From a virus: 64,000 bases of DNA. The translations under genes were made by a program, and so were the position numbers. The stretch is from the IMG/VR virus record IMGVR_UViG_3300027752_001458, positions 1 to 64,000 of that record. The stretch is one strand, 5' to 3'. Shown in pieces: positions 27,601-56,105 of the stretch (position 1 is the first letter of the stretch; each line of letters opens with the position of its first letter). The notes under the pieces were generated by a model. The model saw only the letters and a program-made list of their open reading frames with translations. It searched no databases and had not been told where the DNA came from.

Positions 27601-30600
27601 GTTAGTTGTAATGTTTGTTCTACTACCTTCGTCAAATTCCCAATCATGTGAGCCGCCGGCTCCAACAATATTACCTGTTGTAGTTCCACCGTTAACTGAA
27701 ACAATTATGTCACTAAATGTTGTGCTGTTTGCAGTTTGGAAACTATAACGTTGTCTTGGTTGGTAACGTTTTGCAGGTAAGTTTAATGTGCTTTCTAACG
27801 TGGTGCCTGCGCCTTGCTCTGCTAGTGTAAAGTCGTTACCTTTAATTGTTAAGTAGAACTCTTCAATGCCTGCGCCTGCTGTTCTAGTAAACGTTGCTGA
27901 AATATTTGCACTAATGTCGTTTGTTGAGTTAATTGCGTTAGCAACATCTTGTACAGAAGTCACACTACTCAAGTCAATAATAGTGTTTACGTTAGAACTA
28001 AAGTTGTCTGTAATTAATATATTGCCAGCACTTGTTAAATCTGCAACTGTTATGTTAGCAGTAGAAACAGCATATGGTTTTAAGAATGTAGTAGTAATAT
28101 TTGCTGTAAGTAATTGTGCCGCAACAACTGTTACTGAAGGATTAATGGTATAACCATATCCTGGCTCGTTAACTGTTACGTCAGATATTCTACCATCTGT
28201 TCCAATGTTAACAGTAGCCTTTGCTGTTGTGCCGCCGCCATATTCAAAACTGCCTGGAATGTCTGCTGGTGGTGGTTCAATTTCTAAGAATGGTCTTTGA
28301 TAGAACTTAGTTGTTCTGTCAAGTACCTCTACGGCTTTAACTTTACTTACAATATCTTCTGGGTAAGCAATTTGTATAAGTTGTCTTTCGTTAGTGATTT
28401 CACTCTCACTAACTTTAATATCAATTGTTTGGTAGTTGCCAGTATCACCGAAGTCACCTGCTTTAAGAGCCCATTCGTCATAAACTGCAACACTACCAGG
28501 AACAAGTACCTTGTCACTGTTAAGCAATACTTCGATACTGTTTTTAGTACCCTTACTACGAATCATGCCTGCATAAAAATCATACTGGTCATCTTGTGTA
28601 AGTTCAAATTCTCTAAGGTACTTTCTTTCTTCGTACCCGTATTGTCTTCTACTTGCTTCGTATAGTTGCTTCTCTACAGGCACATGTCCAATTTCATTGT
28701 ATCTACCCATGTCACTAGCAAGTGTATCGAAGTTAGGCTTTAAGCCATCTGGTGTGATAATATAACCTTCTGCTGTCAGTGTTCCGTTCCAGCCTGCAGT
28801 TCTTTTACCTTTAATTTTTATTCTACGTTGTCTCTGATTTAAGACATCGTTGTATATAGTGTCACCGAATATTGTTTTATTCGATAATACCATTGCATGT
28901 TCAATTTCATTTGTGTACAATATTACGCCGTAGATTTGTTTACCTGTCGGTGGTATAATTGTAATTAAATTTGTGTCTCTAGTAATCTCGCACTCGGAAG
29001 TCTTTATTGATTTACCTTCCTGGTCTAGTATACTGTACTGACTCTGGTCTACATCAATAATTTTACTTACTCTGCCGATAGGCGCTAGAAACTTCACATT
29101 GCTTGCTAATGGACTGAGACTTAGCGTATTGCCTGGTGCCCATTTACCTATGCTCCAGAACAAGAACTGTTTTCCGCTGTACAACCAATTGTTAATGTCG
29201 TTGATCTCGCCGTTGAATTCGCCGAAGTCGTAACCCATTGCTTCTTGCTTTCTGCCTAGGCTAATTAAGAAGTCAAACAATTCGTTTACTGTAGCAAACA
29301 CTGTGCCATATTCAACTTTCTTAATTATGCCAGTGCCTTGTAAGTATAATGTTGCTTCAGCGGCATTGGTCATTGGCAATGACGGAAGTCTCTGCCATAA
29401 TGCCGTGTCCGTTACATTACTGCCTGCAGGAGAAAAATCTTTTGCTTGGTAGAAGTTGTACCCTGATTTAATTATTGTGCCTGTTATGTAGTTAACACTG
29501 TTGCTGTAAGTACCGAAGTCTACTGCTTCGCCACCAACACTTACTTCTGTTGCTGGACCACTAGTGTTACTTTCTTCAACTTCAAAGAAACGTTTTACTG
29601 CATTGTAGCCTTCTACTTTATACTTGCCAGCAGTTGTGTAAGTAATTAATACACCTGAGAAATCATTTGTTGTGCTGTAAGGACCAACGTGTACGCCAAT
29701 ATCGATATCTTCTTGTGGCAATATCAAACTTGAACTGTTACCTGTTGAGCTATAACTATCACTGAACACAGTCATAGTATCTTTATCTACATATCCAGCA
29801 AACTTATGTCCAAGTTTACTAGTAATTGATCTATAAGGTTTAACAAATTCTTTTGTTGTGTTAAGACCTTGGAATTTTAAAAATGCGTTAATGTACTGCG
29901 TGAAACCTACAGTATATGTTGTAGTTTCTGATGCAGTAACTTCGCCGTGTATTTCTGCGAGCTTTGCTTTAATTCGTCTATTAGTTGTTCTGTCTAATAA
30001 CTGCTTTGGATTTGCAGAACGTCTAACTGGCTTTCTTGGATCAGAGAACACAGTAGCAAACTTACCTGGCTGTGCTAACAATAGTGCCTGCATAACTGCA
30101 AACGGATAGCCTTCAGATATTTTCCATGCATTCTCAACTGGAGCACCATCGCCAAACTTCCAGTCTTTTCCTGTCAGTGTGCTATCAGCGGCGTACACAG
30201 TACTTAATGTACTTGTTAGTGAGAACGTTGCACCAGTGCTGTCTACTGCTGTTGTGCCAGTGTTGTTTGTACTAACATGCGTAGGTGTTTCTGCAAAACT
30301 TGGTCCAGTAGTATATGGGTACGCAGGTTTGTTACTAGCATCTACAGTTGCTACATAATAGTATGTACCAGCTGGAAATTCGGGTGTTGGTCCACTGCGT
30401 CCGTTATAAGCATCTAGGTCGCCGGAGTTAGCAATGTATTCGTAATCCTCAACAAACTCGCCTGTTGGCGTGCCACCAATTGTTGCTCTTGTTACAGTTT
30501 TTAAACCGTAACTACTGTCAATTCGTTTAATACTGCTCGATGCATTAGCTCTGTCTGAATAACCATATGGCCCGTAAATTGGGAAACCATCAAATGCCCA

Positions 30601-33600
30601 ACCGACGATTGGCGAGTGAGTGGATGTACTCCAGTTATCTAATGCAACTGCCTGTGGGCTAGGCTGAATGTAACCGTAAATGTTATTACTGTCAGGAGCT
30701 CCACCGGCGTTATCTCTGCTAACTTCATTTCTATACATACTGTTGTAAGTAAATGTAGTGCTGTCAGTGTGCGTAACACCTGAATTAGCATTTGTAATTA
30801 ACGCACCGTTAGTTGCTATACCAATTGCTGTATTGCTTGTGGTAGTAGCATTTGCAAACTGAGTGCCTAAGCTGGAAGGATCTACTCGTCCTACCAACGA
30901 TGTTAACTTGTAAGTACTAGCCTTATCTTGTATAATGCTTGTGTTGTCTGCTGTTGGGAATGTACCCACAGCATGATTCATAATATTGTTTGTTGTAATA
31001 TTTAAAACGTTAGCAACCTGAGAAACACTTACACCATCAACATGAATAAACGTGTTGGCACCTCCATTGTTGTCTGATACACCAGTTGTTGTCTCTGCCC
31101 AACTAATTGTTTTAGTTGTTGCTGTTGTGGCAATAATGTTTGCAGGAGCAATCAATGTACCACTTGCGTCAACAGGTAATTCGTATTTTAAACCAATACG
31201 TCTATACGGATTGTCTACTTTATATCTGCTGTTAGTAACATTCTCTCTTGCGCCTTGTCTAATAATACCTTCTTCTAAGTCACTCCACAAGTTGGAATTA
31301 CTTGAAGCATAACTAGTGCCGTACTGTGTTTCCCACCATGTAGGCTTTCTAGTAAATCCTAGCATTTCCCATGGATGCGTGTGAGGTCTATCTGTATCGT
31401 AACATGCCTCAAATATGCCTTTCCAATGTGCTGGCTTACTTGTGCCATGGTTATAGTTCCATGTCCACAGATCGTCTGCTAGATAAAATTCATTTTTAAC
31501 AAAGTCTACATCATTTCTTGTTATGTAGTTGTTAAAGTTAGAACGTAATAAACCATAATACTCATCACGATCTCTACCTGTTTTTCTAAATTGACCAGGT
31601 CTAATGTCACTGACATTTAAGTCTGGTAAACTGTCATTGTTTCTAAATTGCTGTAATGTTGCATTGTATACTCTTTTCTCAAACTCTAAAAGTATGAAGT
31701 CATGCACATCATTCGTTGCAACTGATTTACTTCCATCATGTCCCACTACCATTTTAATAGGACTTATAAAAGTAGTATCTGTAATAATTTCTGGATATGT
31801 AATAGGATACATACCTAATGCACTAGGCGTTGAAGGTACTTGAGCACTTTCTCTATTTGAGTCGTATAGTCTGACTTTAATAGTATTACCTAATGTTATT
31901 GTGTAAGCAGTTTTGAAAGTAACTGTAACAGCACCGAGTGTGGTTGTTATTTCGTAATCAACATCTGCACATAATAATTTGTCTGGGTTAACGCCATCTG
32001 ATTCGTAAAGATAAATTGTGTTTTCAATTTTCAGAAGATCTAGATAGTTTGTTAATGTGTATTCTCTTTTTAATACATTGTTCATAACTAGTTTTTCTTC
32101 GATGTACTTGTCACCAAAGGCTATCATAAACGTATCGTCGAATACATTCTTGCCTTGGTTGTATGCAATAACATTCTCTAAAACTAATTCTAGCATGGCG
32201 CTGTACGACATTGCTGTGTAGTCTGAACTGTTTACAAAGTTTTTAATTTCTTTCTTTAATCTGTTCTTATACTTTACATATTCTTCTGCAACAAAATCCA
32301 TACTGTCTTTAATATTGAACTTGTCATTACTGAACAAGAATGCCGATAGTCTTAAATCGTCATCAGTTTGCATAATCTTATCTGCGTACTTTATGTCTCG
32401 TTTAACATTTTCAGAGTTGTTTGCACCTAATGAGTCACCTGTGTGATCTTCCTGAAACTCTATTAAGTTTTTAAAGTGTTCCAAGTACTCAGGTTGTGAT
32501 ATTGAAAGTATATCTGCATTGTCTAAGTTACTGTGCCAACTGCCTGGTACGTGATATCTACCGTTAGTGTTTACACTTTCAAAGTATCCAGTGTCTGTCT
32601 CAGTAAATATATCAATGATATCAAATTTGCTAAATGTAAAACTTGCAAAAATAACTGCAACTTGTGAGGCATCGTATGAGAACAACTCTGTTCTCTTACC
32701 GTTAACATAAATGCGTATGCTCTTCTCAACTAGCCCTGCAATATCACTCTTGGAGTTAGTTGGTACTGCTGATATGTGGTATAACCTTTTAGCACTTTCG
32801 GAATCACTGTCATTAATAATGTATCGGTCTTCCACACGTTGCTTTAATTTTTCTTCTAATGGTCTCCATGCAGTATCGTAAGTTACTTTAGCATTATTCT
32901 TTTTATAATAGATATAACCACTAATTTGTTTCTTAGCTGTGCCACCGAAAGGTGTGTAAGATTCAAAGTAGTCATCTATATGGTTAGTAAATGATATTTC
33001 ACTAAAGTTGTTAAAGTTTTTATACTCTAACGGGAAGTTTAAAACAGGGTCAGCTGTTCTGTTTGAACTTGTCGGAGTGTACCCAAAAATGTTGTTGCCA
33101 GTAAATGTGCTTGATGGGTAAGTAGCATCGCTGTCTAGCCTGACTTTGCTACTGTCGTACATAACAAACTCAATTGGCGTATTAATTTTTGTCTTCTGCT
33201 GTCCTGCTTTCCATTCAGTGCCTGTCCAGTAGTATTCTATACCCTGGTATTTAGAACCAAACTTAACTGTAATAACATCACCGACTTGTGCAACATATGG
33301 CACAAACCCTGCTTGCCCGTCTAATAAGCCTGCAGGACTAGTAGCGTCTGCTACTTTAGTTAGTACTACATTCTCTGATCCATCATCGCTAATAATATAT
33401 GCATGTTGTGAAACAGATGCATCATCACTAGCTAGTAGTATTGTGTTACCTGGCTGTAATGTTACAGAGTCAATTGATGCGCCTGTCGGTCTACCAACAA
33501 TCTCACTTTGTACATATCCTTCTGCACTCATATCTACTGCAAATTTACCAGTAAGACCAAAGTTCTGTAATTCAATATTTCTATCAAATTCGATAATAGG

Positions 33601-34710
33601 TCTTACTGCACGTTTGTCTTTAGGCGGTAACTGGTCACCGACTTCTAAGAATGTGTTCTTGTGGTGCCAAAAGTTAATTCTGCTCCACACGTTATTATCA
33701 GTTGAGCCACGCTCCATGATAATGTAGTCTGGATTTTCCTGAGTGTTATCACTGTCGTACGGTTCGATGTCAAATGCACCTGCGCCGCCCACTGTGTAAA
33801 CTAGTTGTGATCCGAGTGGTGCAACATAGCCGTTCCATAATGGAAGACCTGACTGTGGATCTGTTTGATCGAATGCGTAATCAGGTGCACCTACTTGAGT
33901 GTACTCGCCACCTGCTACTAGTTGTCCCCAGGATTCATAGTTCGTAATGCCTTGTAATCCGCCACTGTTAAAATATGTGCCTGTTGAGCTAGTTTCTATA
34001 AGAGTGTCTTCGACTCCAATAATTGTTTGGTCAAACTGAATATAATCTTCAGTACTGAAAACAGTTGCAAAGTTTTGATCCTTGTTGTGTAGTATAATGC
34101 TTTCGCCTACACCTTCTACAATATATCTGTTTTCATCTTTAAATTTGTTTGGGATAACATAGTTGCCTGCAAAAGTAACAACCATTCCACTTTTTAATGT
34201 AGTTCCTGCGGGTGTTGTGAATGACCTCTGACCTACAATGTCCTTCTCAATGTTTATAGGAGATGCAGATGTACCTTCAACAATAACTGGTGTCGGGCCG
34301 TTTGGACTCCAAAAGTATTCTTGGTAGTTAACAAACTTGTCAATATTAACTGGTGGTAAAAACGTGTATGCTTCAGAATCAAATATTGAATTTTGATTAA
34401 GTGTATTAACACCATAACTTTTAAGCACGTTGATATAGTCCTCATAGAACATAATGTTTGTGCTTTTACCTGTTGTCTGGTCAATAGTACTTACTGCTGG
34501 CTCTAAACTAAACTTGTCTCTATCAGCAGTTGGTTGCAAAATGTATGTATCTTTTGCACTTAACAGGTCCTCTTCTCGTCTACCAACATAAGCAGACATT
34601 GTCTCAACGTTTGCTTTACTAAAAAGTTGCTCAACTGTTGTATCGAAAAAATTCTTTATAACAGGTGTCTGGTGAATTACGGGAAGTTTTGTATATTTTT
34701 TATCAGCCAT
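15625..34710 (-). CDS. Giant virion structural protein (6,361 aa) in the gp7/gp8/gp10 position
   Basis: One uninterrupted 19-kb reading frame directly downstream of gp6, where T4 has wedge genes 7, 8 and 10. No whole-length family is recognised. Visible parts: residues ~1290-1470 hold a YHYH-type domain (WAFDGFPIYGPYGY, later TYYYVATVDASNKPAYPY); residues ~3530-3640 are a Lys/Pro/Ala/Ser-rich linker; a Cys-containing patch follows (~3790-3870); residues ~3880-4130 look like two Calx-beta-type domains (VNEGGTGTFVVQ, then TVTFTADGTTEGSE). Residues ~5065-5110 are very Gly-rich. The C-terminal ~1,100 residues contain WRDNLPTDYALLERVNWYEQ and EYFNEVKPYSSKIRNY, patterns found in large phage structural proteins. 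The start lies 5 bp after the gp6 stop. It probably forms peripheral baseplate or fibre-attachment structures; a fused gene 7-10 product is inference. Confidence 0.8.
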   Translation of the reverse strand: MADKKYTKLPVIHQTPVIKNFFDTTVEQLFSKANVETMSAYVGRREEDLLSAKDTYILQPTADRDKFSLEPAVSTIDQTTGKSTNIMFYEDYINVLKSYGVNTLNQNSIFDSEAYTFLPPVNIDKFVNYQEYFWSPNGPTPVIVEGTSASPINIEKDIVGQRSFTTPAGTTLKSGMVVTFAGNYVIPNKFKDENRYIVEGVGESIILHNKDQNFATVFSTEDYIQFDQTIIGVEDTLIETSSTGTYFNSGGLQGITNYESWGQLVAGGEYTQVGAPDYAFDQTDPQSGLPLWNGYVAPLGSQLVYTVGGAGAFDIEPYDSDNTQENPDYIIMERGSTDNNVWSRINFWHHKNTFLEVGDQLPPKDKRAVRPIIEFDRNIELQNFGLTGKFAVDMSAEGYVQSEIVGRPTGASIDSVTLQPGNTILLASDDASVSQHAYIISDDGSENVVLTKVADATSPAGLLDGQAGFVPYVAQVGDVITVKFGSKYQGIEYYWTGTEWKAGQQKTKINTPIEFVMYDSSKVRLDSDATYPSSTFTGNNIFGYTPTSSNRTADPVLNFPLEYKNFNNFSEISFTNHIDDYFESYTPFGGTAKKQISGYIYYKKNNAKVTYDTAWRPLEEKLKQRVEDRYIINDSDSESAKRLYHISAVPTNSKSDIAGLVEKSIRIYVNGKRTELFSYDASQVAVIFASFTFSKFDIIDIFTETDTGYFESVNTNGRYHVPGSWHSNLDNADILSISQPEYLEHFKNLIEFQEDHTGDSLGANNSENVKRDIKYADKIMQTDDDLRLSAFLFSNDKFNIKDSMDFVAEEYVKYKNRLKKEIKNFVNSSDYTAMSYSAMLELVLENVIAYNQGKNVFDDTFMIAFGDKYIEEKLVMNNVLKREYTLTNYLDLLKIENTIYLYESDGVNPDKLLCADVDYEITTTLGAVTVTFKTAYTITLGNTIKVRLYDSNRESAQVPSTPSALGMYPITYPEIITDTTFISPIKMVVGHDGSKSVATNDVHDFILLEFEKRVYNATLQQFRNNDSLPDLNVSDIRPGQFRKTGRDRDEYYGLLRSNFNNYITRNDVDFVKNEFYLADDLWTWNYNHGTSKPAHWKGIFEACYDTDRPHTHPWEMLGFTRKPTWWETQYGTSYASSNSNLWSDLEEGIIRQGARENVTNSRYKVDNPYRRIGLKYELPVDASGTLIAPANIIATTATTKTISWAETTTGVSDNNGGANTFIHVDGVSVSQVANVLNITTNNIMNHAVGTFPTADNTSIIQDKASTYKLTSLVGRVDPSSLGTQFANATTTSNTAIGIATNGALITNANSGVTHTDSTTFTYNSMYRNEVSRDNAGGAPDSNNIYGYIQPSPQAVALDNWSTSTHSPIVGWAFDGFPIYGPYGYSDRANASSSIKRIDSSYGLKTVTRATIGGTPTGEFVEDYEYIANSGDLDAYNGRSGPTPEFPAGTYYYVATVDASNKPAYPYTTGPSFAETPTHVSTNNTGTTAVDSTGATFSLTSTLSTVYAADSTLTGKDWKFGDGAPVENAWKISEGYPFAVMQALLLAQPGKFATVFSDPRKPVRRSANPKQLLDRTTNRRIKAKLAEIHGEVTASETTTYTVGFTQYINAFLKFQGLNTTKEFVKPYRSITSKLGHKFAGYVDKDTMTVFSDSYSSTGNSSSLILPQEDIDIGVHVGPYSTTNDFSGVLITYTTAGKYKVEGYNAVKRFFEVEESNTSGPATEVSVGGEAVDFGTYSNSVNYITGTIIKSGYNFYQAKDFSPAGSNVTDTALWQRLPSLPMTNAAEATLYLQGTGIIKKVEYGTVFATVNELFDFLISLGRKQEAMGYDFGEFNGEINDINNWLYSGKQFLFWSIGKWAPGNTLSLSPLASNVKFLAPIGRVSKIIDVDQSQYSILDQEGKSIKTSECEITRDTNLITIIPPTGKQIYGVILYTNEIEHAMVLSNKTIFGDTIYNDVLNQRQRRIKIKGKRTAGWNGTLTAEGYIITPDGLKPNFDTLASDMGRYNEIGHVPVEKQLYEASRRQYGYEERKYLREFELTQDDQYDFYAGMIRSKGTKNSIEVLLNSDKVLVPGSVAVYDEWALKAGDFGDTGNYQTIDIKVSESEITNERQLIQIAYPEDIVSKVKAVEVLDRTTKFYQRPFLEIEPPPADIPGSFEYGGGTTAKATVNIGTDGRISDVTVNEPGYGYTINPSVTVVAAQLLTANITTTFLKPYAVSTANITVADLTSAGNILITDNFSSNVNTIIDLSSVTSVQDVANAINSTNDISANISATFTRTAGAGIEEFYLTIKGNDFTLAEQGAGTTLESTLNLPAKRYQPRQRYSFQTANSTTFSDIIVSVNGGTTTGNIVGAGGSHDWEFDEGSRTNITTNSLLSGNVSQSFTFTPVEVGDGITTTTPLAADNLQIINGSYPHVDVFINGAKLPETSEEALYTITSDIGAGTSTLNFLDCGAIPGAPIQPNSVIEIVERGTIDLEDTYYGDLPGSSMNIKVFANDALAAKLTQMRTFEIYPDSKDDATILIDVDDPIRLPVRPSDMAEKGLWPLTSSVSYVGLVDSKYAPLPNSGYVSKYNVQYQAFDIYDFENLFDVNQLANASKLPKENDTIHFAKGEHEEFEVYKLTSTGSNVSYVEFDEGVGTSFLWADVKLSDIILDNNDNSNVSADYDHTKWFDQVLALKGNNIISPNYANLVSYDGNPIYVTDQLEVDHPITRFVSEEKVAERSVEMGNINYTVPSVNTISTITPQLSGNIINAEAVTLQNAYQYARAEEVTPTTDITIFRSVDAIPNMKVHNKQLTFTINNGQLDGVAQGHWLKFHDNSSSNLNGNIFQVANITPAGEVQLYANTTVLGGMTETVTKANLTFINFGNAKTGNTSVDYTVQIVAPGHPFSVGSNVVFNVDNIGATVGDVFVVKDKTDTTFTLGSALYGTHTALNVITDTATVSLAETTLKVTAVPNALSLKGDSFDFVGESLFDGLTVKFKDESGTELAGASFSPKNIRTEKVLNKNFTERLSTLGNISTPVQGTVENAVTSGTVVNINTAETLEKGMYLFHSTVTEPTQIISVAYDLPNYGSEPAKAIRGADSGTNVITLSSTTGVNVGDYVIVPLVLGHDINDTANSVTVATISGNDITLSQGITSLTVPNPLPAGTYASGDALDASLNNFDINLADGRSFSGDATLYFLHTGDGQVANVTLQNAVTLAADDIVDFAKAIREVEATTPAQEVELVVFDINPASYTGGALNEANLSFTINDATKITTDTDLSTLVNLEYVKINQLSSEDIVESVRRIDTTSNSFVINKTLFDAPRLTLTVASDVTAGTSVTILGNTNRLIEGMRVTGTGVPAGTTIATIVGDTIITLSDNVTLTAGDTVETYRTTYEEATFMGANTVITTGENHTFAIDGSDTLVGNGITVHAYDPDYYNNTFTVVDIPTANTIVIDYPAFSHPYETGGVTYRSEFDYKVYGTDAPGITGKEGFTPFFIADHKGNISFNGANVVTSTYPWHSVEQYAADIKDIMYSKAGMVVKKGSMFININWADVSQKVKDYMANKGKGAVKKPGKNAIPLTAGTTVKNSAAPKGSAAVKVTSGPAKKTTTKAKSNSSDGSQNTYDPTLKTGTGKNGDPKVDNLPTLTPKEVASQALQQALFDQSKSILPGQQELTKPLAQRYLDQQGTTSGGGYSIGGGAFNGAETEYGAGGSQWGTSKQEFDYASGQWESVPSGTSWTRDDIKFTMQTDGTITASDGSVWATSATRLEKGTMGGMGEDYADYGKVYGGQTHSIDKVDPTLKSKIAFTNDFTGDDPANIGIQHASHNCVDAIKHTHEYVETGRSCTVDANGFNGAGTQRVDSKCIHAGDETKGKCDAPKITEYVDNIASCYKPYASGFTAEWKQDSVNEGGTGTFVVQANNITAGETIVVDATGSVDLAADINGGLTTPFTMTFNANGTATKTVTFTADGTTEGSELLKFRLRASTSKGALTGQPSDIVTVNDTSLDPVPTYTGMTANKHRVGENGEEITFTLLGKHLSAGATVTATMSGVSRTDFATGGDLTNSMTLVFAMAQIGSTTKWQATAQVVTRNDVLTEGTETATLTAGATDSNGATVGLVGSSAVSPVGVIIDDTSIAPIPPFERVNYYLYHSSGPSPEVVSFQLAADQSIDEQLNVFFNMYSAEDRMDVYQGTSKYMMNKVVATTNSNSTCTVQTTAEKAQFKKLITNAPGANDGAINSIQRTGDMGGILGGGRKNVGKCSFNYKPGLGRWITIKTSRGVNGSNSAVFYWGFNQLPINQGQQTWYWEKSNAGGVGFASTGSTIASSKNANSQPTTVHSGSGGSGNPGVPINVNIGGGASNSAIGGTFAGATHVWPGPNGGQGSPTTKQNNNGNLVATSPAQQYQFTGVGGNNFGGININHVGNSAGLGTKPNIRQTGQSNSVKRFDNQESFYKGSIKAGPVNFTNSAERPLRPLDGRPSFVAQDGTFSGKTNSPIPTNDTFNPQSNPEKPKARFMTIKLLKKTITGLYQPLIAGGSQASMDVELNKYCMKPKIKLCSSNTWIPGKDGASTAGSGAVATDHSQYNLRDGDTFWINDKQISTSGITGVEAMKARVQQVMGDQIDATIITEDGVKCLQILMRDNTPDVPILRNGCKGGILKEVLDYTVNNKLNVAFSETTTLAGTRTNTNTVNTKVLADTDSDANTADSEVGSVSTTATGTDYISNTIGAQQRKDRNQPSTITQGHNGTGYRRGDILRAVGGVAVSQQSNTGFAGDGMSIAGIQFTRGGRGYGKLDKATGLYQADGSIRITVGGAGTSGYGFEFDADHITVDANTGALVGVAFTDGLRQFMGLQAVTANDGSQLIGTGYVFNNPPTINIIGSGADAVGQVVWANEKPSSKEEVAVFRVTDVDDDGAIIDLAVLHRGLYQTFPGDLNSGVPLEYHVTKNATGTKPGDQTFSSISNTSRGSGTGGRVFLTGRLIGDCRQKGTAIQDMGLQEGAQDPGSFLQNMVDSINANSQKDPNGMPYFTASVDDSGVIPGLRLGTEAGDGIELEGSFPGLLESMNIDSGAYIPEIPPAIDVVSGGASVGDGFNEDGTQPGTGGTAGGGGAGDGTGGGFGVGAGASDGTKTGGPDSGKAIRFQSRSPFAIGTAIGDLVQSGQLYKYELRRLDGASPISITASDVSAIHVNPYALQSQRISNDLNANGTVKVNVTSLSNVWVDNYQNTNKWAYLESGTVIRQQEKLVDTKFIRDVFTYDEDSAEKEFDIDLYDPFKGILPGFIGKEIDFRTERDPVVYDPRKVKYGRKDVGLRWWDTSTLRYTWYEQGPGTYSSTGYNNYERSQNWGEMFPGSRVVINEWVESLTAPSNTDNFITETHADKNGKPKTYYYFWQSDLSIVSDMARVNFQKERSTLELTRLLQDIDSERVAYSGIISPDAMVVNTMGSLIRTDDSILSVNFKRKENENAQKHTSWTLAGEGDRDGTIPNNLSMKLIDSLAGYNGLDQAVPGSGLSVSERYGSKFRPRQTMFKDIKKARKQMFVILNDIFRQLQMETTFLDWRDNLPTDYALLERVNWYEQIRIDKTNNSTVYYDNTYKPLRKVADTKQFGLLKNVLDKSIIQVQKDDSARYTLYEYSKKTDKFTLIAMENETVRWTNTVHSSGQSLAIGKEVRLILNALYSNVFVNTYSAHWNKFFFEMLKYAYAEQGELDYAFKTTYLKIVKEETDLVPFKGFKIDNFDKAVEYFNEVKPYSSKIRNYSDIKKAPVEIMSGSTSDFDRPPFYDEGLKAVRILDKNVPADALTLSTDKDYTGFSNTPSKIRSMDQTIVFDRVKGALYENTTGGSVQTIVADGTTSVFNLNFEVQDSDRLEIFVNGRKIDKTSTSANTTVTNYLVDVGNAFISFTDEAGVNNAVGLPGNGDKIEVKYIDGFDPTLETMNVSIAKNIVAIETASNTSISNTSLQWTAPERLWKFNPSVRTAVTNAFDLAYGVGASSNTSITTNISVVSEMVSSGNLTTALNLVKSKVHATFQGQELDGNIFTDVVPGTHPTTHYTDTRGFDANTWDDGLFDREVEVNNFVGVFSEDSQGNVNYRVDDETVYGFDSVTFLKSQYGPDRPEELIVVQPLETLVMDVMTQGNTQISTDSTDVRFMVFMDMFGQTEYYRRNITPLTTVTSPLAIWDTEIMFADVTKIPNATKQDRSVIWINGERIEYENKNLATKSISGIIRGTKGTTPNTIIPVGAEVYNGEESENIRLRDANGLLVRDPEDFNWIKPVEIFDDTIPFDDDWDGSGNLTVTSANVNYANVTYDGDTDNITYGFDSSWDGSGTFNPTGRPGGNNNSVLNWPLFDEDEVNGWDSGNKTVKEAGSITDKGTVLKSNVSIIDFLHNFE

Positions 34711-39578: not shown

Positions 39579-39608
39579 TTGACTTTGGTATGATTTAGAC
39601 TATATAAT
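39579..39608 (+). promoter_or_regulatory. Early sigma70-type promoter
   Basis: TTGACT (39579-39584) and TATAAT (39603-39608) with an 18-bp spacer; the -35 continues as TTGACTTTGGTA, shared with the promoter at 52697. It drives the small operon at 39661-40751. Confidence 0.78.
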
Positions 39609-39660: not shown

Positions 39661-39945
39661 ATGAAAAACGTTTTAGACAAATTTAACAGCATCGTTGAGC
39701 TTGCAGACAAGGCTAACAAAGCCATTGCCCGCAACCGTTATGAAGGAACTACAGGCTATGGCCCCAGGTTCAGAAAAATGATGCACTTTAACAACAGGCG
39801 TGTACACTCAGTGGGCATTTACGATTACCATCTTAAGAACTACGTTCTGTTTGAGCTAGTCAATATGGTCGGTCAGTCAAAGCACTCGATTCCAAAAGAA
39901 TTGCGTCAAATGGAGCGACTAATATTAGATGCCAAGATTGCCTAA
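39661..39945 (+). CDS. Hypothetical protein, 94 aa
   Basis: First gene after an early promoter. It is a basic protein with a helical N-terminus (VLDKFNSIVELADKANKAIA) and an aromatic/basic middle (YGPRFRKMMHFNNRRVHS). No metal site, signal peptide or known domain recognised. It overlaps the hydrolase start by 17 bp. Its early position and basic nature would suit a nucleic-acid- or host-protein-binding factor, but nothing in the sequence proves that. Confidence 0.7.
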   Translation: MKNVLDKFNSIVELADKANKAIARNRYEGTTGYGPRFRKMMHFNNRRVHSVGIYDYHLKNYVLFELVNMVGQSKHSIPKELRQMERLILDAKIA

Positions 39946-40579
39946 CGTAGTATTTGTTCACGGATCAGGTCAATCAGGGCTTAGTGTTAGTTATTTAGAA
40001 GTATTTTTGCCAGAATGTAATCTAGTTTGTCTAGAATACAAAGTGCAAGAAAACCCAGATGATATACTGAAACGATTCAACTTGCTTACTCGTAATGAGT
40101 TTGGAGACGAATCGTTTCATATAATTGCACATAGTTACGGTTGTTTGATCTCTAGCCTGTTTGCCGCGAAGTCGAAACGAGTATTATCATTCGTTGCATT
40201 AAGTTCCCCATGGGGAGGCAGTCAAACAGCACGTTGGATATCAATGGTATTCCGACAAAGTAAACTGTTTAACAATGTAAAGCCGAACAGTAACTTTATG
40301 CAAGACATACAAAACATCAAGTTAGACTGTCATGTTACGAATGTAGTAACAACAGGATCGACAGGCTCTGCTAATGACTTGGCAGGGCTAGGAACACAGC
40401 ACAACGACGGACTACTCACAGTTGCTACTCAGACCAATGTACCGAAAGGATTTTCTAACGTGGAAACTGTTTACCTTCCGTTGAGTCACAACGAAGTACT
40501 TTTATCATTCGATACTATAAATATAATTAAGAAACATACCTTCGGAGACACTAGTGGCACAGAATACTTCTTTAAATAA
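39929..40579 (+). CDS. Alpha/beta hydrolase (lipase/esterase-like)
   Basis: A 216-aa serine hydrolase of the alpha/beta fold. The oxyanion loop HGSG is at residues 11-14; the nucleophile elbow AHSYG places the catalytic serine at S69 (first Gly replaced by Ala, which is common in lipases). A candidate acid is D160 (HNDGLL) and a candidate base H187 (LSHNEV), in the right order. SSPWGG after the nucleophile resembles lipase/PGAP1-like proteins. No signal peptide, so it should act in the cytoplasm unless exported with lysis. Expressed early; substrate unknown (lipid, ester or acyl-thioester). It lies between two small unknown genes in one operon. Confidence 0.8.
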   Translation: MPRLPNVVFVHGSGQSGLSVSYLEVFLPECNLVCLEYKVQENPDDILKRFNLLTRNEFGDESFHIIAHSYGCLISSLFAAKSKRVLSFVALSSPWGGSQTARWISMVFRQSKLFNNVKPNSNFMQDIQNIKLDCHVTNVVTTGSTGSANDLAGLGTQHNDGLLTVATQTNVPKGFSNVETVYLPLSHNEVLLSFDTINIIKKHTFGDTSGTEYFFK

Positions 40580-50759: not shown

Positions 50760-51181
50760 GCCAGTGGACATATAAAGGTAAACAAGTAGACGAGCTACCG
50801 ACAGACTGCGAAGCATTTGTTTACCTAATCACAAACTTAACTAGCGATAAGAAGTACGTTGGTAAAAAGTTAGCAAAGTTCAAAACAACCAAGCCTCCCT
50901 TAAAGGGAAAGAAGAATAAACGCCGTGGCACTAAAGAAAGTGACTGGCGTACATATTGGGGCAGTTCGGATCACTTAAATGCTGATGTGTTAGAGCTAGG
51001 CGAAGATAAGTTTACAAGAGAAATATTGCATTATTGCCCAACTAGAGGCATAGCAAGTTACATCGAAGCAGAAGAACAATTTAATCGAAATGTTCTCTTG
51101 ACAGATGAGTATTATAATGGTATAATAAACGTCAGAGTAGGCGGTTCAAAAATACTAAAGGAACATTTTGGAAAGACATAA
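50756..51181 (+). CDS. GIY-YIG-like nuclease
   Basis: A 141-aa protein resembling small GIY-YIG nucleases of T4-like phages. AFVYLITNLTSDKKYVGKKL gives the two strands (VYLI for GIY, YVG for YIG); a conserved-looking Arg lies in KFTREILHYC and a Glu in SYIEAEEQF, as in the catalytic set. The RGTKESDWRTYWGSS block is typical of the phage subgroup. It may cut branched or modified DNA during recombination, or be a homing relic. It starts at a GTG overlapping the gp46 stop (GTGA), so it is coupled to the recombination operon. Confidence 0.7.
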   Translation: MSQWTYKGKQVDELPTDCEAFVYLITNLTSDKKYVGKKLAKFKTTKPPLKGKKNKRRGTKESDWRTYWGSSDHLNADVLELGEDKFTREILHYCPTRGIASYIEAEEQFNRNVLLTDEYYNGIINVRVGGSKILKEHFGKT

Positions 51182-51425
51182 CTATATATTGAACATGGCA
51201 CACACCGACACCCAGTCTCGCTAATAAAAACGATCCCAGACACAAAGTCAAACTAATAAAGTACAACACATAGGACTATGCACCAGCCCCAACCGAGGCC
51301 AATATCGGACTCTTCGACAAACCTGAACAAGGTGCGAGAATTAGAGATGCATAGCGGTAAAGATACGACACATACGAAAAACTGTATTAGAAGGATGTAG
51401 GCACTGAGAAAAAGCAACCTACAAG

Positions 51426-51458
51426 TTTGTATAACTAAACTCTACAAGGTTATACAAA
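51426..51458 (+). repeat. Strong hairpin in the non-coding region
   Basis: TTTGTATAAC (51426-51435) pairs with GTTATACAAA (51449-51458), ten perfect pairs with a 13-nt loop; A-U and G-U pairs could extend it by two. The longest hairpin in the region. Confidence 0.6.
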
Positions 51459-51567
51459 TTTCCGTGAGATGAGACGGTAGTGTATGGGGACAGAAAGCTC
51501 ACTGGTTCCTTTAAGCACCCGAGTTAGAGATGATGATGGCTCATATGATGACAATATGACCGAACAG

Positions 51568-51589
51568 CTTCTCCTTGCAATAGGAGAAG
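51568..51589 (+). repeat. Eight-base-pair hairpin in the non-coding region
   Basis: CTTCTCCT and AGGAGAAG around the loop TGCAAT. The right arm contains AGGAG, a ribosome-binding-like sequence hidden in the stem, but no ORF follows. Confidence 0.55.
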
Positions 51590-51702
51590 TATGACTCCAA
51601 CTATATGATAACTTTAAATTACTTCTTTAATTTAAAAAAGTTACTTCAAGAACTGAAATGAATGAAATGATTGAAGTTAGTAGAAGTAAAGATACGAAGT
51701 AT

Positions 51703-52221
51703 CTATAAAGTATTAAACAATTCAACAGTATCTCTGTAAGACAAACGTAAATTAACTGTATACAAATAAAAGTCTTTGTTTAATGAATGTAATGAAGCTC
51801 CATGGAATTTAGTTACGTCTAGTATACACACTTCACCTGGATGTAACATTTTATTGTGTTCTGAGTCTTTATGTATTATTTCAATTGGAACATCTTCTAA
51901 GTTAAACATTATATTAGTTTTTCTTGTTAGAGGGTTCTTCCATCCCATTAACCAATCCTGATGTAGTTTCACCATTGTACCTTGCTTAACAGTTTCTATT
52001 GCTACACTATGCTCCGCAATGTCTAACGGCAACGGAGTAGCGTCTATTATTTGTTGTTGTAGGCTTTGAGGCATGTCGCGGAGTAAAAAAATGTGCTGAT
52101 CCATTTCAGCACGGTCTTCTACTAAATGAAACTCACTAGCCTCTTTGAACTGCGTTATAGGTTCAACAAGTTGTCGCATTGCGTCAACATCATAGTCCCA
52201 CTTTAAAATTGTGCTATACAT
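51703..52221 (-). CDS. 2OG-Fe(II) oxygenase-like protein (first of two)
   Basis: A 172-aa protein with the iron- and 2-oxoglutarate-binding pattern HXD...H...R: H87 and D89 (KLHQDWLMG), H140 (TKFHGASLH) and R159 (VNLRLSY), with beta strands of a double-stranded helix between (KTNIMFNLED, GEVCILDVT). Such enzymes hydroxylate proteins, nucleic acids or small molecules; the target here is unknown. The paralogous gene upstream overlaps it by 19 bp and shares the GE..I.D.TK.HG block, so the pair likely arose by duplication and may act together. A weak hairpin (AGATAC-TTC-GTATCT) sits at the stop. Confidence 0.75.
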   Translation of the reverse strand: MYSTILKWDYDVDAMRQLVEPITQFKEASEFHLVEDRAEMDQHIFLLRDMPQSLQQQIIDATPLPLDIAEHSVAIETVKQGTMVKLHQDWLMGWKNPLTRKTNIMFNLEDVPIEIIHKDSEHNKMLHPGEVCILDVTKFHGASLHSLNKDFYLYTVNLRLSYRDTVELFNTL

Positions 52222-52652
52222 TCGCTGTAGAACATCCTATTATTGACTGTTACAAACTCAGCTTTGAAGGGATTTTCGCGGTTATCACACCCATGTTCTT
52301 TAGTAGTATCTATTATAAAGAACTCGCCTACTTGTATAGTGTGGTCTTCTATTACACCATTATTAGTGTGCTGTACTGTAGCAGGCCCCTCTCCCACGTT
52401 AATCAGTATATTACTGTTTCTCCCACCGATATCTATGTGCAAGTGCAGTTGATCATGTTCCATAATATACTCTAATCCCACGTGGTGTAACGGCTCAATA
52501 TGGTACTTTTCGATGAAGTCAGCAGGCATCCTGCTCCATAACTGCTGGGCAGAATACAGCTTTTGGCGAATCTTCCTAAGCTGTACTACGCTACTCAGCA
52601 TCTTGTCTGTACGCAAAAACTCGAGGAATTGCTTAAATTCTATACTTTCCAT
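52203..52652 (-). CDS. 2OG-Fe(II) oxygenase-like protein (second of two)
   Basis: A 149-aa protein with the same fold pattern as its downstream neighbour: H72 and D74 (LHLHIDIGG), H120 (TTKEHGCDN) and R139 (VNNRMF), with GEFFIIDTTKEHG matching GEVCILDVTKFHG of the paralogue. The N-terminal 50 residues are helical. All metal ligands are present, so it may be active; if not, it could be a regulatory partner. The ATG at 52652 has no ribosome-binding site and sits exactly 5 nt after a late box (GGTAAATA), pointing to leaderless initiation. The start also lies within a 10-bp repeat shared with the divergent early promoter. Confidence 0.72.
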   Translation of the reverse strand: MESIEFKQFLEFLRTDKMLSSVVQLRKIRQKLYSAQQLWSRMPADFIEKYHIEPLHHVGLEYIMEHDQLHLHIDIGGRNSNILINVGEGPATVQHTNNGVIEDHTIQVGEFFIIDTTKEHGCDNRENPFKAEFVTVNNRMFYSECIAQF

Positions 52653-52722
52653 ACCAGTATTTACCTAATTAGGAGCCAGAAAGAATGGTAAAAAGGTTGA
52701 CTTTGGTACTAGATACCAGTAT
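52651..52722. repeat. Two copies of ATACCAGTAT between divergent promoters
   Basis: The 10-mer ATACCAGTAT occurs at 52651-52660, over the start codon and late box of the minus gene, and at 52713-52722, over the -10 region of the plus early promoter. The copies are 62 bp apart, about six helix turns. This looks like a shared operator. Confidence 0.5.
52658..52665 (-). promoter_or_regulatory. Late promoter box variant (GGTAAATA)
   Basis: Minus strand GGTAAATA-CTGGT-ATG upstream of the two 2OG-like genes; same 5-nt spacing as four other genes. Confidence 0.6.
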
Positions 52723-52725
52723 AAT
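52697..52725 (+). promoter_or_regulatory. Early sigma70-type promoter with inverted repeat in spacer
   Basis: TTGACT (52697-52702) and TATAAT (52720-52725), 17-bp spacer. The spacer holds TGGTA-CTAGA-TACCA (52704-52718), an operator-like inverted repeat. It drives the 52759-56105 operon. Confidence 0.8.
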
Positions 52726-52758: not shown

Positions 52759-53226
52759 ATGTACAATATATACCAAATCAAACTAAGCGAAGCAGTATAC
52801 AACTTTGTTAACGGTCCAGAAGGCGGACACACAAAGACTGCTGAAAAGTACCCAGAGTACAACACTCATATGGAAGTAATGCACAAGGGTTCAAAAGGAT
52901 ATACTCCTGAGATGTTTGCACATTACACTAAGGTTTGTGAGGTTGCTAACTTTGAACCTTCAGATCAAATTCTAGAAGAAGTGTTTAAAATCTTAAACGG
53001 TTACTACTTCGATGAAGAGACTGAGACAGACGAGACATTTGATGCTTTCGTTAGTGGTTTTAAAATGAAGACAGTCACTCGCAAGAACGGTGAAGTTGTA
53101 ACTTTCAGAGACATGCATTCACTATCACTTGGTGACATTGTTGAAGACACTTCAACTGGTGAGTTCCACATGGTAGACGGCATGGGCTTTAAGCAAATTC
53201 AAACTAAAATAGCGGAGTTAGTGTAA
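52759..53226 (+). CDS. Hypothetical early protein, 155 aa
   Basis: First gene of the early operon, with AAGGAAAGAG before the ATG. The N-terminus MYNIYQIKLSEAVYNFVN leads into a helical region, and the C-terminal half has short beta strands (KTVTRKNGEVVTFRDMHSLS, LGDIVEDTSTGEFHMVDGMG), which resemble a small domain found in other marine phages. No catalytic residues recognised. It is acidic overall with a run DEETETDETFD near residue 92-102. Function unknown. Confidence 0.75.
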   Translation: MYNIYQIKLSEAVYNFVNGPEGGHTKTAEKYPEYNTHMEVMHKGSKGYTPEMFAHYTKVCEVANFEPSDQILEEVFKILNGYYFDEETETDETFDAFVSGFKMKTVTRKNGEVVTFRDMHSLSLGDIVEDTSTGEFHMVDGMGFKQIQTKIAELV

Positions 53227-53457
53227 ATGGCTGTTAAGACTAAAAAGTATGTGCGTATTGATTCATACAACGACTTGTTAATGCCACTTGAGGTGTTTGA
53301 GCGTGTTGCTGATCAAATTATGTTTGTGCGAACTGTATACGAAGACGGTGCAACACACCTTTCTGAGATAACTGAAATTGATAAGTTTCACTTGCACACT
53401 CCTGCAGAAGTTGAAAATTTACTGATGCACGACAAGTTGAGTAAATCGAATGATTGA
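53227..53457 (+). CDS. Hypothetical early protein, 76 aa
   Basis: Starts directly after the stop of the previous gene. It begins MAVKTKKYVRIDSYNDLLMP and ends in a polar tail (HDKLSKSND); its middle (ADQIMFVRTVYEDGATHLSE) looks like two beta strands and a turn. No known domain or metal site. It overlaps the SWIM gene start by 8 bp, so it is co-translated with it. Function unknown. Confidence 0.7.
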   Translation: MAVKTKKYVRIDSYNDLLMPLEVFERVADQIMFVRTVYEDGATHLSEITEIDKFHLHTPAEVENLLMHDKLSKSND

Positions 53458-53764
53458 TATATTACAAGAAGTAACAGACTGGGGCAAGTACTCAGTTAAC
53501 AACGGCATTTATCATGTGAACGGTGCAGGACAGTTAGTTGCATATAAGCCATCAGATGATGCTGAACTTAAAACGTTTATTAACCCATTAAAGCAGTTTA
53601 GCAAAAGTAGACGTAAGTTTGTTAAGCTCGGGCAAGTAGAAGAGCAGTTAGCAGATGACGTTATTGTTGTACAAGGCAGTAACGGAAAAACTTACACAAT
53701 CCAAGATGGCAAATGTAGTTGCCCTGGTTACACTTACAGAGGAGATTGTAAACATGTTAAATAA
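53450..53764 (+). CDS. SWIM zinc-finger protein
   Basis: A 104-aa protein whose C-terminus carries a SWIM-type zinc-binding motif: KCSCPGYTYRGDCKHVK, i.e. CXC...CXH, preceded by the usual strands (GKTYTIQDG). SWIM domains bind DNA or proteins, often in recombination or transposition factors. The protein stops directly after the motif, so no further domain follows. Expressed early from the promoter at 52697. The last 11 bp overlap the lipoprotein gene. Role in infection unknown. Confidence 0.82.
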   Translation: MIDILQEVTDWGKYSVNNGIYHVNGAGQLVAYKPSDDAELKTFINPLKQFSKSRRKFVKLGQVEEQLADDVIVVQGSNGKTYTIQDGKCSCPGYTYRGDCKHVK

Positions 53765-56105
53765 AATTATTAGTGTATCAGCAGTATTATTGTTAGGAGC
53801 ATGTGCAAGCGGCGGTGGGTCATCCCCTGCTCCAGTGACACCTGTAGTATCTACTTCACAAGCAACTACTACACCCACAGACCAACGGCATGCGTTTGAC
53901 ACATGGTCTAAAGTGTTCACTACTAATTTGTCAGGCTACAGTGCTAGTGTAACACAAAAGTATGACATGACGGATTATACCACAACAGGTTTGCCTGCTC
54001 CAACTGAAAAATATAAAATAGCAGACTATGGTTTTTTCCGTTCTACTATTACAGGCAGTCATCCTGGGTTTGACTACGAAGACACAACACCTATTTTAAG
54101 TTTCATGCAACATGGTCAGATTATCAGAGCTGACTTAAATGGCGATGGATGGCAAGACTTTTACTTGGCGAATTGGGTCGGCAATGACAGGTCTGAATTT
54201 GAACCTGACAGTATGTTGTTTGCATTTTTAAATGATGGTGACGGTAACTTTATATTAAGCAACGATTTGTTTCCAGAAGGCAACCCTTGTTTTAGGGGCT
54301 CCGGTTGTGACAACAATACTGAACACCAAAAAGGTTTAGTGGTTGCAGACTTTAATGGAGACGGCATTGACGACATCTATCAAGGCACTACACTTGTGCT
54401 CAGCGACAACGGAAAGTTATACGATAAAGGCGACACCCATTTGCCTATGGCAGAGTTGTTTGAGAAGTGTATGCCTGGTCAATATAACAGTATGTGTTTC
54501 CAGCACGATGCTGATGTAGGCGATGCAGACGGTGACGGTGACATAGACATTTTTATTCCTATCTCGTCAGCACATGTTGATAACTATCCTATGCCTTGGG
54601 CAATGTTAATAAATGACGGCACTGGTAAGTTTACTGCTAATCAAAACTTCCCAACACAGGCGGCAAATGTGTTTGCTACAGCGGCTACTATAGGCGACTT
54701 CGATGGTGACGGACACGGTGATGTTGCTGTTGGGTGGTTTATGACAGCCGAAGCAAAAGCAAATGGCTTTAGCGAAAACTATGACAATAGTGCAGGCACG
54801 GTATTTTGGAATGATGGAAATAATGATTGGAGAAACAGAGCATGGACAGAGCTTCCTGACAACTACTACGGTGCAAACGGAAATGCAAACGACATAAAAG
54901 CATTTGATTTTAACGGAGACGGCTTACTTGATATTATACTTGCGTCTACTAAGCACGAACCATATTACGATGGCAGGGTTGTACAGTTTTTCTTAAACAA
55001 CGGTGATGAGACATTTAGTGATGTTACAAGCACAGTTAATCCAGACACAAAATATGTTAACGGTTTGTGCCCAGACTCAACTGGTCCTTGCTATTGGAAC
55101 GGAGACGGCAACTTAGAAATATTAGACTTTGATGCAGACGGTGATTTAGATATCGTCGACACAGTGTTTGGTACTTATGCGTTAATAAACGAAGACGGCA
55201 CGTTTACAATATACGATGACTTTCCTACTTTTGACGACAGCACATCTTACTACCCAGTAGAAATAGACAACAAGTATTTCTATGACTTTATTGCTTCAAC
55301 TACGGAATACAGCGACACAGAAAGTATCCAAACATTTTATCAAGTGTTAGATCCGCCTTTTGTAAAAATGATGGAAGAGATTACTAACAAGCCTAAAGCA
55401 TACGTTGAAGGTATATTTGAAAGTAAGATGTTGTTTAGCGACTTACGACAGAACCAACGCTCAACCTCATTGTTTGCTACTGATATGGAAACATACGGTA
55501 TGGCAGGAGTGACACACAGAACAGACACGTTCGGATTTAATGCAGGTAAACTTACTGGTGATAACAATGGTAGTTTTGTTGGACTTGACTATGTAAGCAA
55601 TAACATACACGTTGGCATTAACTATGTTAACAACACTATGTCAATGTATAATCCTACAGAATATTACGGCACAGGTTCAGCTGATGTTGACTACGACACT
55701 GTTAGTGTGTTTGCAGAACAAGTGACTTATTTGACAGACACATGGTATACATCATACGGTGTTGAACTTTACCACACTGAAGTAGATAGCTTTACTGAAC
55801 AGAACAGTACACACAATGTTACAGTGGATGCATTTAATATGTCTGACGCAAAACTGTTTGCTGATATTACAGGCAAGTTTAATTCTAAATTAGGCTCAAC
55901 GTTTGTAAGTTTAGGGTATGAAGTTTATCGTGGACTAGGTAGCAGTACTGTTAACTTTGCTGATGTACTAGAGTATGATTCATCGCGTGAACTGGACTTA
56001 GGTAAGATTTCGGTATTACACATGTATAACTCTTTTTATGCAAGAGCTTCTATGAATACAGAAGAGTATAACACTTTTGAAGTTGGTTTTTTAATTAACT
56101 GGTAG
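53754..56105 (+). CDS. Outer-membrane-type lipoprotein with FG-GAP/VCBS-like repeats and beta-barrel-like end
   Basis: A 783-aa secreted protein. The N-terminus MLNKIISVSAVLLLGAC is a lipoprotein signal with a lipobox (LGAC, lipidated C17); Ala at +2 favours outer-membrane sorting. After a Gly/Ser/Pro/Thr linker come six calcium-binding DXDXDG-type loops of FG-GAP/VCBS repeats (DLNGDGWQD, DFNGDGIDD, DADGDGDID, DFDGDGHGD, DFNGDGLLD, DFDADGDLD), which fold as a beta-propeller. The C-terminal ~240 residues are alternating polar/aromatic strands and end in FEVGFLINW, with a terminal aromatic residue as in outer-membrane barrels. I chose the ATG at 53754 (AGGAGA upstream) rather than an in-frame codon at 53655 inside the SWIM gene, because only it gives the signal peptide. 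Early expression suggests alteration of the host surface. Confidence 0.85.
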   Translation: MLNKIISVSAVLLLGACASGGGSSPAPVTPVVSTSQATTTPTDQRHAFDTWSKVFTTNLSGYSASVTQKYDMTDYTTTGLPAPTEKYKIADYGFFRSTITGSHPGFDYEDTTPILSFMQHGQIIRADLNGDGWQDFYLANWVGNDRSEFEPDSMLFAFLNDGDGNFILSNDLFPEGNPCFRGSGCDNNTEHQKGLVVADFNGDGIDDIYQGTTLVLSDNGKLYDKGDTHLPMAELFEKCMPGQYNSMCFQHDADVGDADGDGDIDIFIPISSAHVDNYPMPWAMLINDGTGKFTANQNFPTQAANVFATAATIGDFDGDGHGDVAVGWFMTAEAKANGFSENYDNSAGTVFWNDGNNDWRNRAWTELPDNYYGANGNANDIKAFDFNGDGLLDIILASTKHEPYYDGRVVQFFLNNGDETFSDVTSTVNPDTKYVNGLCPDSTGPCYWNGDGNLEILDFDADGDLDIVDTVFGTYALINEDGTFTIYDDFPTFDDSTSYYPVEIDNKYFYDFIASTTEYSDTESIQTFYQVLDPPFVKMMEEITNKPKAYVEGIFESKMLFSDLRQNQRSTSLFATDMETYGMAGVTHRTDTFGFNAGKLTGDNNGSFVGLDYVSNNIHVGINYVNNTMSMYNPTEYYGTGSADVDYDTVSVFAEQVTYLTDTWYTSYGVELYHTEVDSFTEQNSTHNVTVDAFNMSDAKLFADITGKFNSKLGSTFVSLGYEVYRGLGSSTVNFADVLEYDSSRELDLGKISVLHMYNSFYARASMNTEEYNTFEVGFLINW

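What the first reader, a model, noticed from the sequence alone, without database searches (positions are those of the whole stretch)
53754..56105. Early-expressed phage lipoprotein combining FG-GAP propeller and barrel-like C-terminus
A lipobox, Ala at +2, six DXDXDG loops and a C-terminal region ending in an aromatic residue predict a surface-exposed host outer-membrane protein made early. Small phage lipoproteins (e.g. T5 Llp, T1/N15 Cor) block receptors, but a 783-aa calcium-dependent propeller with a barrel-like end would be a new type of superinfection exclusion or surface-remodelling protein.
Basis: inference. Interest (0 to 1): 0.8.

Follow-up and report, generated by a model that had tools for sequence, protein, structure and literature searches.

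The report
Phage-made autotransporter displaying a propeller
A large marine phage carries a gene, probably switched on early in infection, for a lipid-anchored protein that seems able to push its own calcium-binding propeller domain out through a self-made pore in the host's outer membrane, a type of surface protein also found on SAR86 bacterial chromosomes and suited to changing what an infected cell shows to other phages or neighbours.

Summary
ORF 53754-56105 encodes 783 aa with a lipobox (LGA|C-Ala), six canonical DxDxDG loops (FG-GAP_3, E=1.8e-22) and a C-terminal barrel ending in Trp. Modelled alone it is confident (pLDDT 90, pTM 0.83): helix plus 12 strands, and the solved structures it best matches are type V autotransporter translocators (EspP, EstA, NalP, Hbp). 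It is therefore best read as a lipidated classical autotransporter with a beta-propeller passenger.

"Early" is supported: a near-consensus sigma70 promoter lies upstream of the SWIM-finger/lipoprotein gene pair in the window and in 31 of 33 related phage loci, with none on the opposite strand.

The family is phage-wide in IMG/VR (32 different proteins in the tree), absent from 50,697 GenBank phage records, and also chromosomal in SAR86 (8 of 151 genomes). One chromosomal copy is 74% identical to a phage copy, pointing to SAR86-like hosts. Barrels are swapped, and in some lineages absent, at one junction (QVLDPP).

Surface exposure is inferred. Superinfection exclusion remains the leading but untested role. 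Phage autotransporters already exist as database annotations, so this is a new variant of a known kind.

The parts
52697..52725 (+). near-consensus sigma70 promoter TTGACT-17-TATAAT (11/12) before the four-gene operon
   Evidence: a site of at least 11/12 lies upstream of the SWIM gene in 31 of 33 related SWIM-lipoprotein loci, 0 on the reverse strand of the same 70.4 kb
52759..53226 (+). operon gene 1, 155 aa, weak YodL-like C-terminus
   Evidence: Pfam YodL E=3.2e-4, below cut-off
53227..53457 (+). operon gene 2, 76 aa, no family
   Evidence: conserved in relatives (family F7)
53450..53764 (+). operon gene 3, 104 aa SWIM-like zinc finger (CxCPG...CKH), overlaps the lipoprotein gene by 11 bases
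   Evidence: Pfam SWIM E=0.001, just below cut-off; Cys/His residues invariant in 12 relatives; adjacency conserved
53754..56105 (+). the finding: 783-aa lipidated autotransporter-like protein
53754..53804 (+). lipoprotein signal peptide; lipobox LGA|C at residues 14-17, Ala at +2
   Evidence: invariant in alignment A1
54003..55352 (+). passenger: FG-GAP beta-propeller, residues 84-533, six canonical loops and a probable degenerate seventh (residues 501-513)
   Evidence: Foldseek to integrin alpha4 headpiece E=5e-5
55338..55361 (+). passenger/translocator junction (Y/F-Q-V-L-D-P-P), site of barrel swaps and barrel loss
55353..55454 (+). linker helix, residues 534-567, probably in the barrel lumen
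55467..56102 (+). 12-strand C-terminal autotransporter-type barrel, last residue Trp
   Evidence: pLDDT 90.3, pTM 0.83; Foldseek EspP E=5.7e-8, EstA 1.1e-6, NalP 4.9e-6, Hbp 1.4e-5

Best explanation
The gene encodes a lipidated classical (type Va-like) autotransporter made early by host RNA polymerase. The chain crosses the inner membrane by Sec and is lipidated at Cys17. BAM inserts the C-terminal 12-strand barrel in the outer membrane, and the helix and propeller thread outward so that a calcium-binding propeller is displayed on the infected cell. The most likely benefit is exclusion: the displayed propeller masks or captures surface structures that competing phages, or sibling virions hitting debris, would bind. 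Shown by computation: lipobox, propeller, autotransporter-type barrel model, conserved sigma70 promoter, chromosomal homologues in SAR86. Inferred: outward topology, host identity, and the exclusion role. My estimates: anatomy 0.85, early expression 0.8, outward display 0.65, exclusion given display about 0.4-0.5.
For: Lipobox and C-A-S-G-G-G-S are invariant. FG-GAP_3 E=1.8e-22. Confident barrel model whose top nine PDB matches are all autotransporter chains: EspP, EstA, NalP, Hbp. The order passenger, helix, barrel is that of type Va autotransporters, and lipidated type Va autotransporters exist (NalP, SphB1; PMC8151025). In the model, long loops sit on one side and short turns on the other, with both barrel termini at the short-turn (periplasmic) side, as in outer-membrane barrels (my reading). 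An invariant Cys pair (C179/C185) fits an oxidising compartment. Sigma70 promoter in 31 of 33 loci; the T4 late box TATAAATA is absent from the operon. Homologues lie on SAR86 chromosomes beside rpoD/dnaG and guaA/guaB, one 74% identical over 777 aa to a phage copy.
Against: No Pfam or PDB sequence match for the barrel: the assignment rests on a predicted fold with TM about 0.5-0.6. The propeller is poorly modelled (full-length mean pLDDT 62). The position of the helix in the lumen was not seen directly. Some phage loci carry barrel-less lipoproteins in the same SWIM slot (L016/L066, L080/L081, L093, L109), so outward export through an own barrel is not needed in every lineage. The propeller is more conserved than the barrel, which is not the pattern expected if the displayed part were in a receptor arms race. 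No adsorption data exist.
Confidence: 0.35

Rival explanations
1. It is a host-type adhesin or polymer-binding protein carried by the phage to keep or alter host surface behaviour (attachment, aggregation, ligand capture) during infection, rather than to exclude phages.
For: Homologues with the same architecture sit on SAR86 chromosomes (8 of 151 genomes), so the function makes sense for a cell. One (L034) lies among glycosyltransferase and UDP-glucose dehydrogenase genes. The passenger fold matches integrin alpha propellers. The passenger is more conserved than the barrel.
Against: The chromosomal function is unknown. Early expression in a lytic-looking phage gives little time for an adhesion benefit. 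Presence in only about 5% of SAR86 genomes.
Confidence: 0.25
2. The propeller stays in the periplasm, tethered at both ends to the outer membrane (lipid and barrel), and acts on outer-membrane proteins from inside, as T5 Llp does on FhuA.
For: Llp acts from the periplasmic face (PMC9586334). Barrel-less lipoprotein variants occupy the same slot and would by default be periplasmic. For lipidated autotransporters the final leaflet of the lipid is not established (PMC8151025).
Against: The domain order and the helix before the barrel are those of translocators that export the passenger; a 12-strand barrel would be needless for a periplasmic tether.
Confidence: 0.2
3. It is a virion component such as a receptor-binding or decoration protein.
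For: In the window it lies next to baseplate, tape-measure-sized and portal genes.
Against: Lipobox and outer-membrane barrel; sigma70 promoter; in other phages the same gene pair sits in an unrelated neighbourhood beside an ATPase and enzyme-like genes; chromosomal homologues.
Confidence: 0.05

Closest known systems
Classical type Va autotransporters (EspP, Hbp, BrkA, EstA)
   Same: Signal, passenger, helix, C-terminal 12-strand barrel; best fold matches
   Different: Passenger is an FG-GAP propeller, not a beta-helix; encoded by a phage; no detectable sequence similarity
Lipidated autotransporters NalP and SphB1
   Same: Lipobox plus translocator; NalP barrel matched at E=4.9e-6
   Different: NalP and SphB1 passengers are subtilases (own knowledge); here a propeller with no protease domain
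FG-GAP propellers, integrin alpha type
   Same: Pfam FG-GAP_3 well above cut-off; fold match to integrin alpha4
   Different: Bacterial/phage secreted lipoprotein; only six canonical loops
Phage superinfection-exclusion lipoproteins T5 Llp and T1/N15 Cor
   Same: Phage-encoded lipoprotein with evidence for early expression
   Different: Those are small and have no barrel; Llp works from the periplasm (PMC9586334)
Unstudied phage proteins annotated 'Autotransporter beta-domain containing protein' (BFVD A0A6J5KUW0, A0A6J5L9T3, A0A6J5R861) and A0A6J5L9S5, 831 aa, 'Repeat domain in Vibrio, Colwellia...'
   Same: Phage proteins whose predicted fold matches this barrel; the last may share the repeat-plus-barrel design
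   Different: Names only; no work on them found in the paper library

Membership tests
Type Va (classical) autotransporter | N-terminal export signal | tested here: met
   Lipoprotein signal, lipobox invariant; by pattern, SignalP not available
Type Va (classical) autotransporter | C-terminal 12-strand beta-barrel with hydrophobic/aromatic last residue | tested here: met
   Model pLDDT 90.3, helix plus 12 strands; Trp at the end
Type Va (classical) autotransporter | Alpha-helical linker before the barrel, running through its lumen | tested here: inconclusive
   Helix present with high confidence; lumen position not inspected
Type Va (classical) autotransporter | Fold match to solved translocators | tested here: met
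   EspP 5.7e-8, EstA 1.1e-6, NalP 4.9e-6
Type Va (classical) autotransporter | Sequence match to the Pfam autotransporter beta-domain | tested here: not met
   No such match for 16 members even at E up to 10; a lead test only, not a structural definition
Type Va (classical) autotransporter | Passenger secreted to the cell surface | not testable with these tools
   Needs cell experiments
Lipidated autotransporter (NalP/SphB1 type) | Lipobox in an autotransporter | tested here: met
   precedent in PMC8151025
FG-GAP / integrin-alpha propeller | Repeats above the curated cut-off, with DxDxDG calcium loops | tested here: met
   80.2 bits against 26.9; six loops
FG-GAP / integrin-alpha propeller | Seven-bladed closed propeller | tested here: inconclusive
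   Low confidence in the full-length model; six canonical and one degenerate repeat
Llp/Cor superinfection-exclusion lipoproteins | Small lipoprotein without barrel | tested here: not met
   783 aa with barrel
Llp/Cor superinfection-exclusion lipoproteins | Blocks receptor-dependent adsorption | not testable with these tools
   Needs adsorption assays

The most novel reading that the evidence does not exclude
A conserved early-expression slot (sigma70 promoter, SWIM-finger gene, overlapping lipoprotein gene) lets large marine phages, probably of SAR86-like hosts, carry an interchangeable surface-display protein. The propeller passenger is kept while autotransporter barrels are swapped, or are lacking, at a fixed junction. 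The phage thereby rebuilds the outer face of the infected cell with a protein type shared with host chromosomes.
Probability: 0.35. Interest if true: 0.8.

Novelty: new variant of a known kind. Interest (0 to 1): 0.62.

Why it matters
Known phage exclusion proteins that sit at the outer membrane are mostly small lipoproteins. A phage that makes a full autotransporter early would show that phages can install a large exposed domain on a dying cell using the host's own BAM pathway. The SAR86 link matters too: SAR86 is an abundant and hard-to-culture ocean group, and a gene shared at 74% identity between a large phage and a SAR86 chromosome is a usable host tag. The swap junction and the barrel-less variants make the question of what the barrel adds directly testable.

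Tried and rejected
Pfam, PHROGs and PDB sequence searches of the barrel gave no family, so the assignment rests on structure. INPHARED phages: no match; plasmids: no match for the SAR86 relative. T4 late-promoter box as an alternative timing signal: only 2 in the window, none near the operon. A virion role was rejected as main explanation (see rivals). That the SAR86 copies are prophage or contamination was rejected for L042 and L043, whose flanks are core chromosomal genes on 218 kb and 479 kb contigs; for L020 and L021, on 3-4 kb contigs, it was not rejected. Paper searches for phage autotransporters returned nothing describing this type. One search showed that autotransporter-annotated phage proteins already exist, which lowered my novelty rating.

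Full report
Observation. The ORF at 53754-56105 (+) is real and 783 aa long. Its N-terminus MLNKIISVSAVLLLGAC|ASGGGS is a lipoprotein signal, and C-A-S-G-G-G-S is invariant in the first eight aligned members. FG-GAP_3 is matched at 80.2 bits (cut-off 26.9) with six strict calcium loops at residues 127, 199, 257, 315, 385 and 458. A degenerate seventh repeat (PVEIDNKYFYDFI, residues 501-513) is conserved in sequence and would complete a seven-blade propeller; this is my reading, and the full-length model is too weak there (pLDDT 62) to prove it.

The barrel. The C-terminal 255 residues, modelled from 16 relatives, give pLDDT 90.3 and pTM 0.83: a helix followed by 12 strands. The nine best PDB matches are all autotransporter chains (EspP, EstA, NalP, Hbp), and BrkA and AaaA follow close behind. 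The full-length model independently matches EspP and NalP for the barrel and integrin alpha4 for the propeller. Sequence profiles see none of this. The protein therefore has the order signal, passenger, helix, translocator of a classical autotransporter, with the lipobox known from NalP and SphB1 (PMC8151025).

Early expression. A TTGACT-17-TATAAT site (11/12) at 52697-52725 precedes the operon 52759-56105. In 12 relatives from two different genomic neighbourhoods a site of at least 11/12 lies directly before the equivalent gene group. In the wider set of loci with the SWIM gene, 31 of 33 with a lipoprotein have such a site within 1.1 kb upstream, against none on the opposite strand in 70.4 kb. 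These loci are related to each other, so they are not independent trials, but the site has been kept. Loci with the SWIM gene but no lipoprotein mostly have the site too (24 of 31), so the promoter belongs to the gene group and not to the lipoprotein alone. Near-consensus sigma70 promoters are the early class in T4-like phages (established knowledge); timing in this phage was not measured.

Neighbourhood. The lipoprotein gene overlaps the SWIM-finger gene 53450-53764 by 11 bases. The pair recurs in two contexts. Context A is the window type: recombination nuclease genes, SegE-type gene, SWIM, lipoprotein, baseplate gene, tape-measure-sized gene, portal. Context B has an ATPase gene series upstream and nucleotide- and sugar-enzyme-like genes downstream (enzyme names from reading the sequences). 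The SWIM gene is found in at least 184 viral loci; of the 80 kept, 41 have an FG-GAP lipoprotein of more than 500 aa right after it. Others have different small genes there.

Family and host. After merging near-copies, 32 phage and 10 bacterial-genome proteins went into the tree. No GenBank phage has one. Among 151 genomes of the SAR86 order 8 have a full-length relative, and a sample of 369 Gammaproteobacteria gave only the SAR86 query genome itself. Two chromosomal copies are beyond doubt: one beside rpoD and dnaG, one beside guaA and guaB and near glycosyltransferase genes. The latter, L034, is 74% identical to the protein of phage contig L077 over 777 aa, and the two pair with 100/100 support in both the propeller and the barrel tree. 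L077 has the window-type neighbourhood. A gene has thus moved between such a phage and a SAR86 chromosome, which makes SAR86-like hosts the best guess for the window phage, whose portal is nearest to PA5oct-like jumbo phages at about 55%.

Module exchange. L011 has an L012/L013-type propeller (88/84%) with an L005/L010-type barrel (74/70%). L009 has an L005-type propeller (86%) with a window-type barrel (52%). Identity switches at residue about 530, and both trees place the parts accordingly. L010/L098 and L074/L075/L078 share a propeller clade but carry different barrels. Barrel-less forms end at the same junction (L080, L109, L093, L020); in phages they carry C-G-G-G-G after the lipobox where barrel forms carry C-A-S/G. 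The propeller is conserved more than the barrel (window against SAR86: 46-53% against 17-39%).

Mechanism. The architecture and early promoter fit a protein meant to change the outer face of the infected cell before progeny appear. Exclusion of other phages is a well-documented reason for a phage to do that early (PMC9586334), so I commit to it as most likely, at 0.35 for the whole chain. The SAR86 homologues show the protein has a use without a phage, which supports an adhesin or ligand-binding role as the main rival. Barrel-less variants and the periplasmic action of Llp keep a periplasmic role open.

Novelty. A structural search of viral proteins shows uncultured phage proteins already annotated as autotransporters, including one 831-aa protein with a Vibrio/Colwellia repeat name. 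This is therefore a new variant, not a new kind. I found no paper describing a phage-encoded lipidated propeller autotransporter; the library is partial.

Noticed in passing
window 51098-51700: A perfect 12/12 sigma70 promoter (51098-51126) at the end of the SegE-type gene precedes about 500 bases without a plausible gene that stay alignable in L003 and L004 (84% mean column identity; part of the 5' end is coding). No Rfam match. Candidate early non-coding RNA.
   Followed up: partly
window 15625-34710: Uninterrupted minus-strand ORF of 6361 aa, about 19 kb; not examined.
   Followed up: no
window 51703-52652: Two overlapping minus-strand genes of one family lie between the SegE-type gene and the operon and recur in context A relatives; H-x-D...H motifs suggest hydroxylase-like enzymes (my reading).
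   Followed up: no
L020 (3,126 b contig, Piscirickettsiaceae MAG): Propeller 73-75% identical to the window's, but with an ordinary secretion-type N-terminus carrying an extra calcium-motif repeat, no lipobox and no barrel.
   Followed up: partly
L066, L080, L093, L109: Barrel-less phage lipoproteins in the same SWIM slot carry C-G-G-G-G after the lipobox, whereas barrel forms carry C-A-S-G-G-G or similar: the linker seems to travel with the presence of the barrel.
   Followed up: partly
L048-L127: The SWIM-finger gene is a widespread marine phage gene (184 loci) with several alternative neighbours, including ~70-aa membrane proteins ending in KYxDGDNT. Its function is unknown.
   Followed up: no
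window 39929-40579: Alpha/beta hydrolase gene (Pfam Abhydrolase_1 E=9e-7) on the plus strand with an 11/12 sigma70 site upstream at 39579-39608.
   Followed up: no
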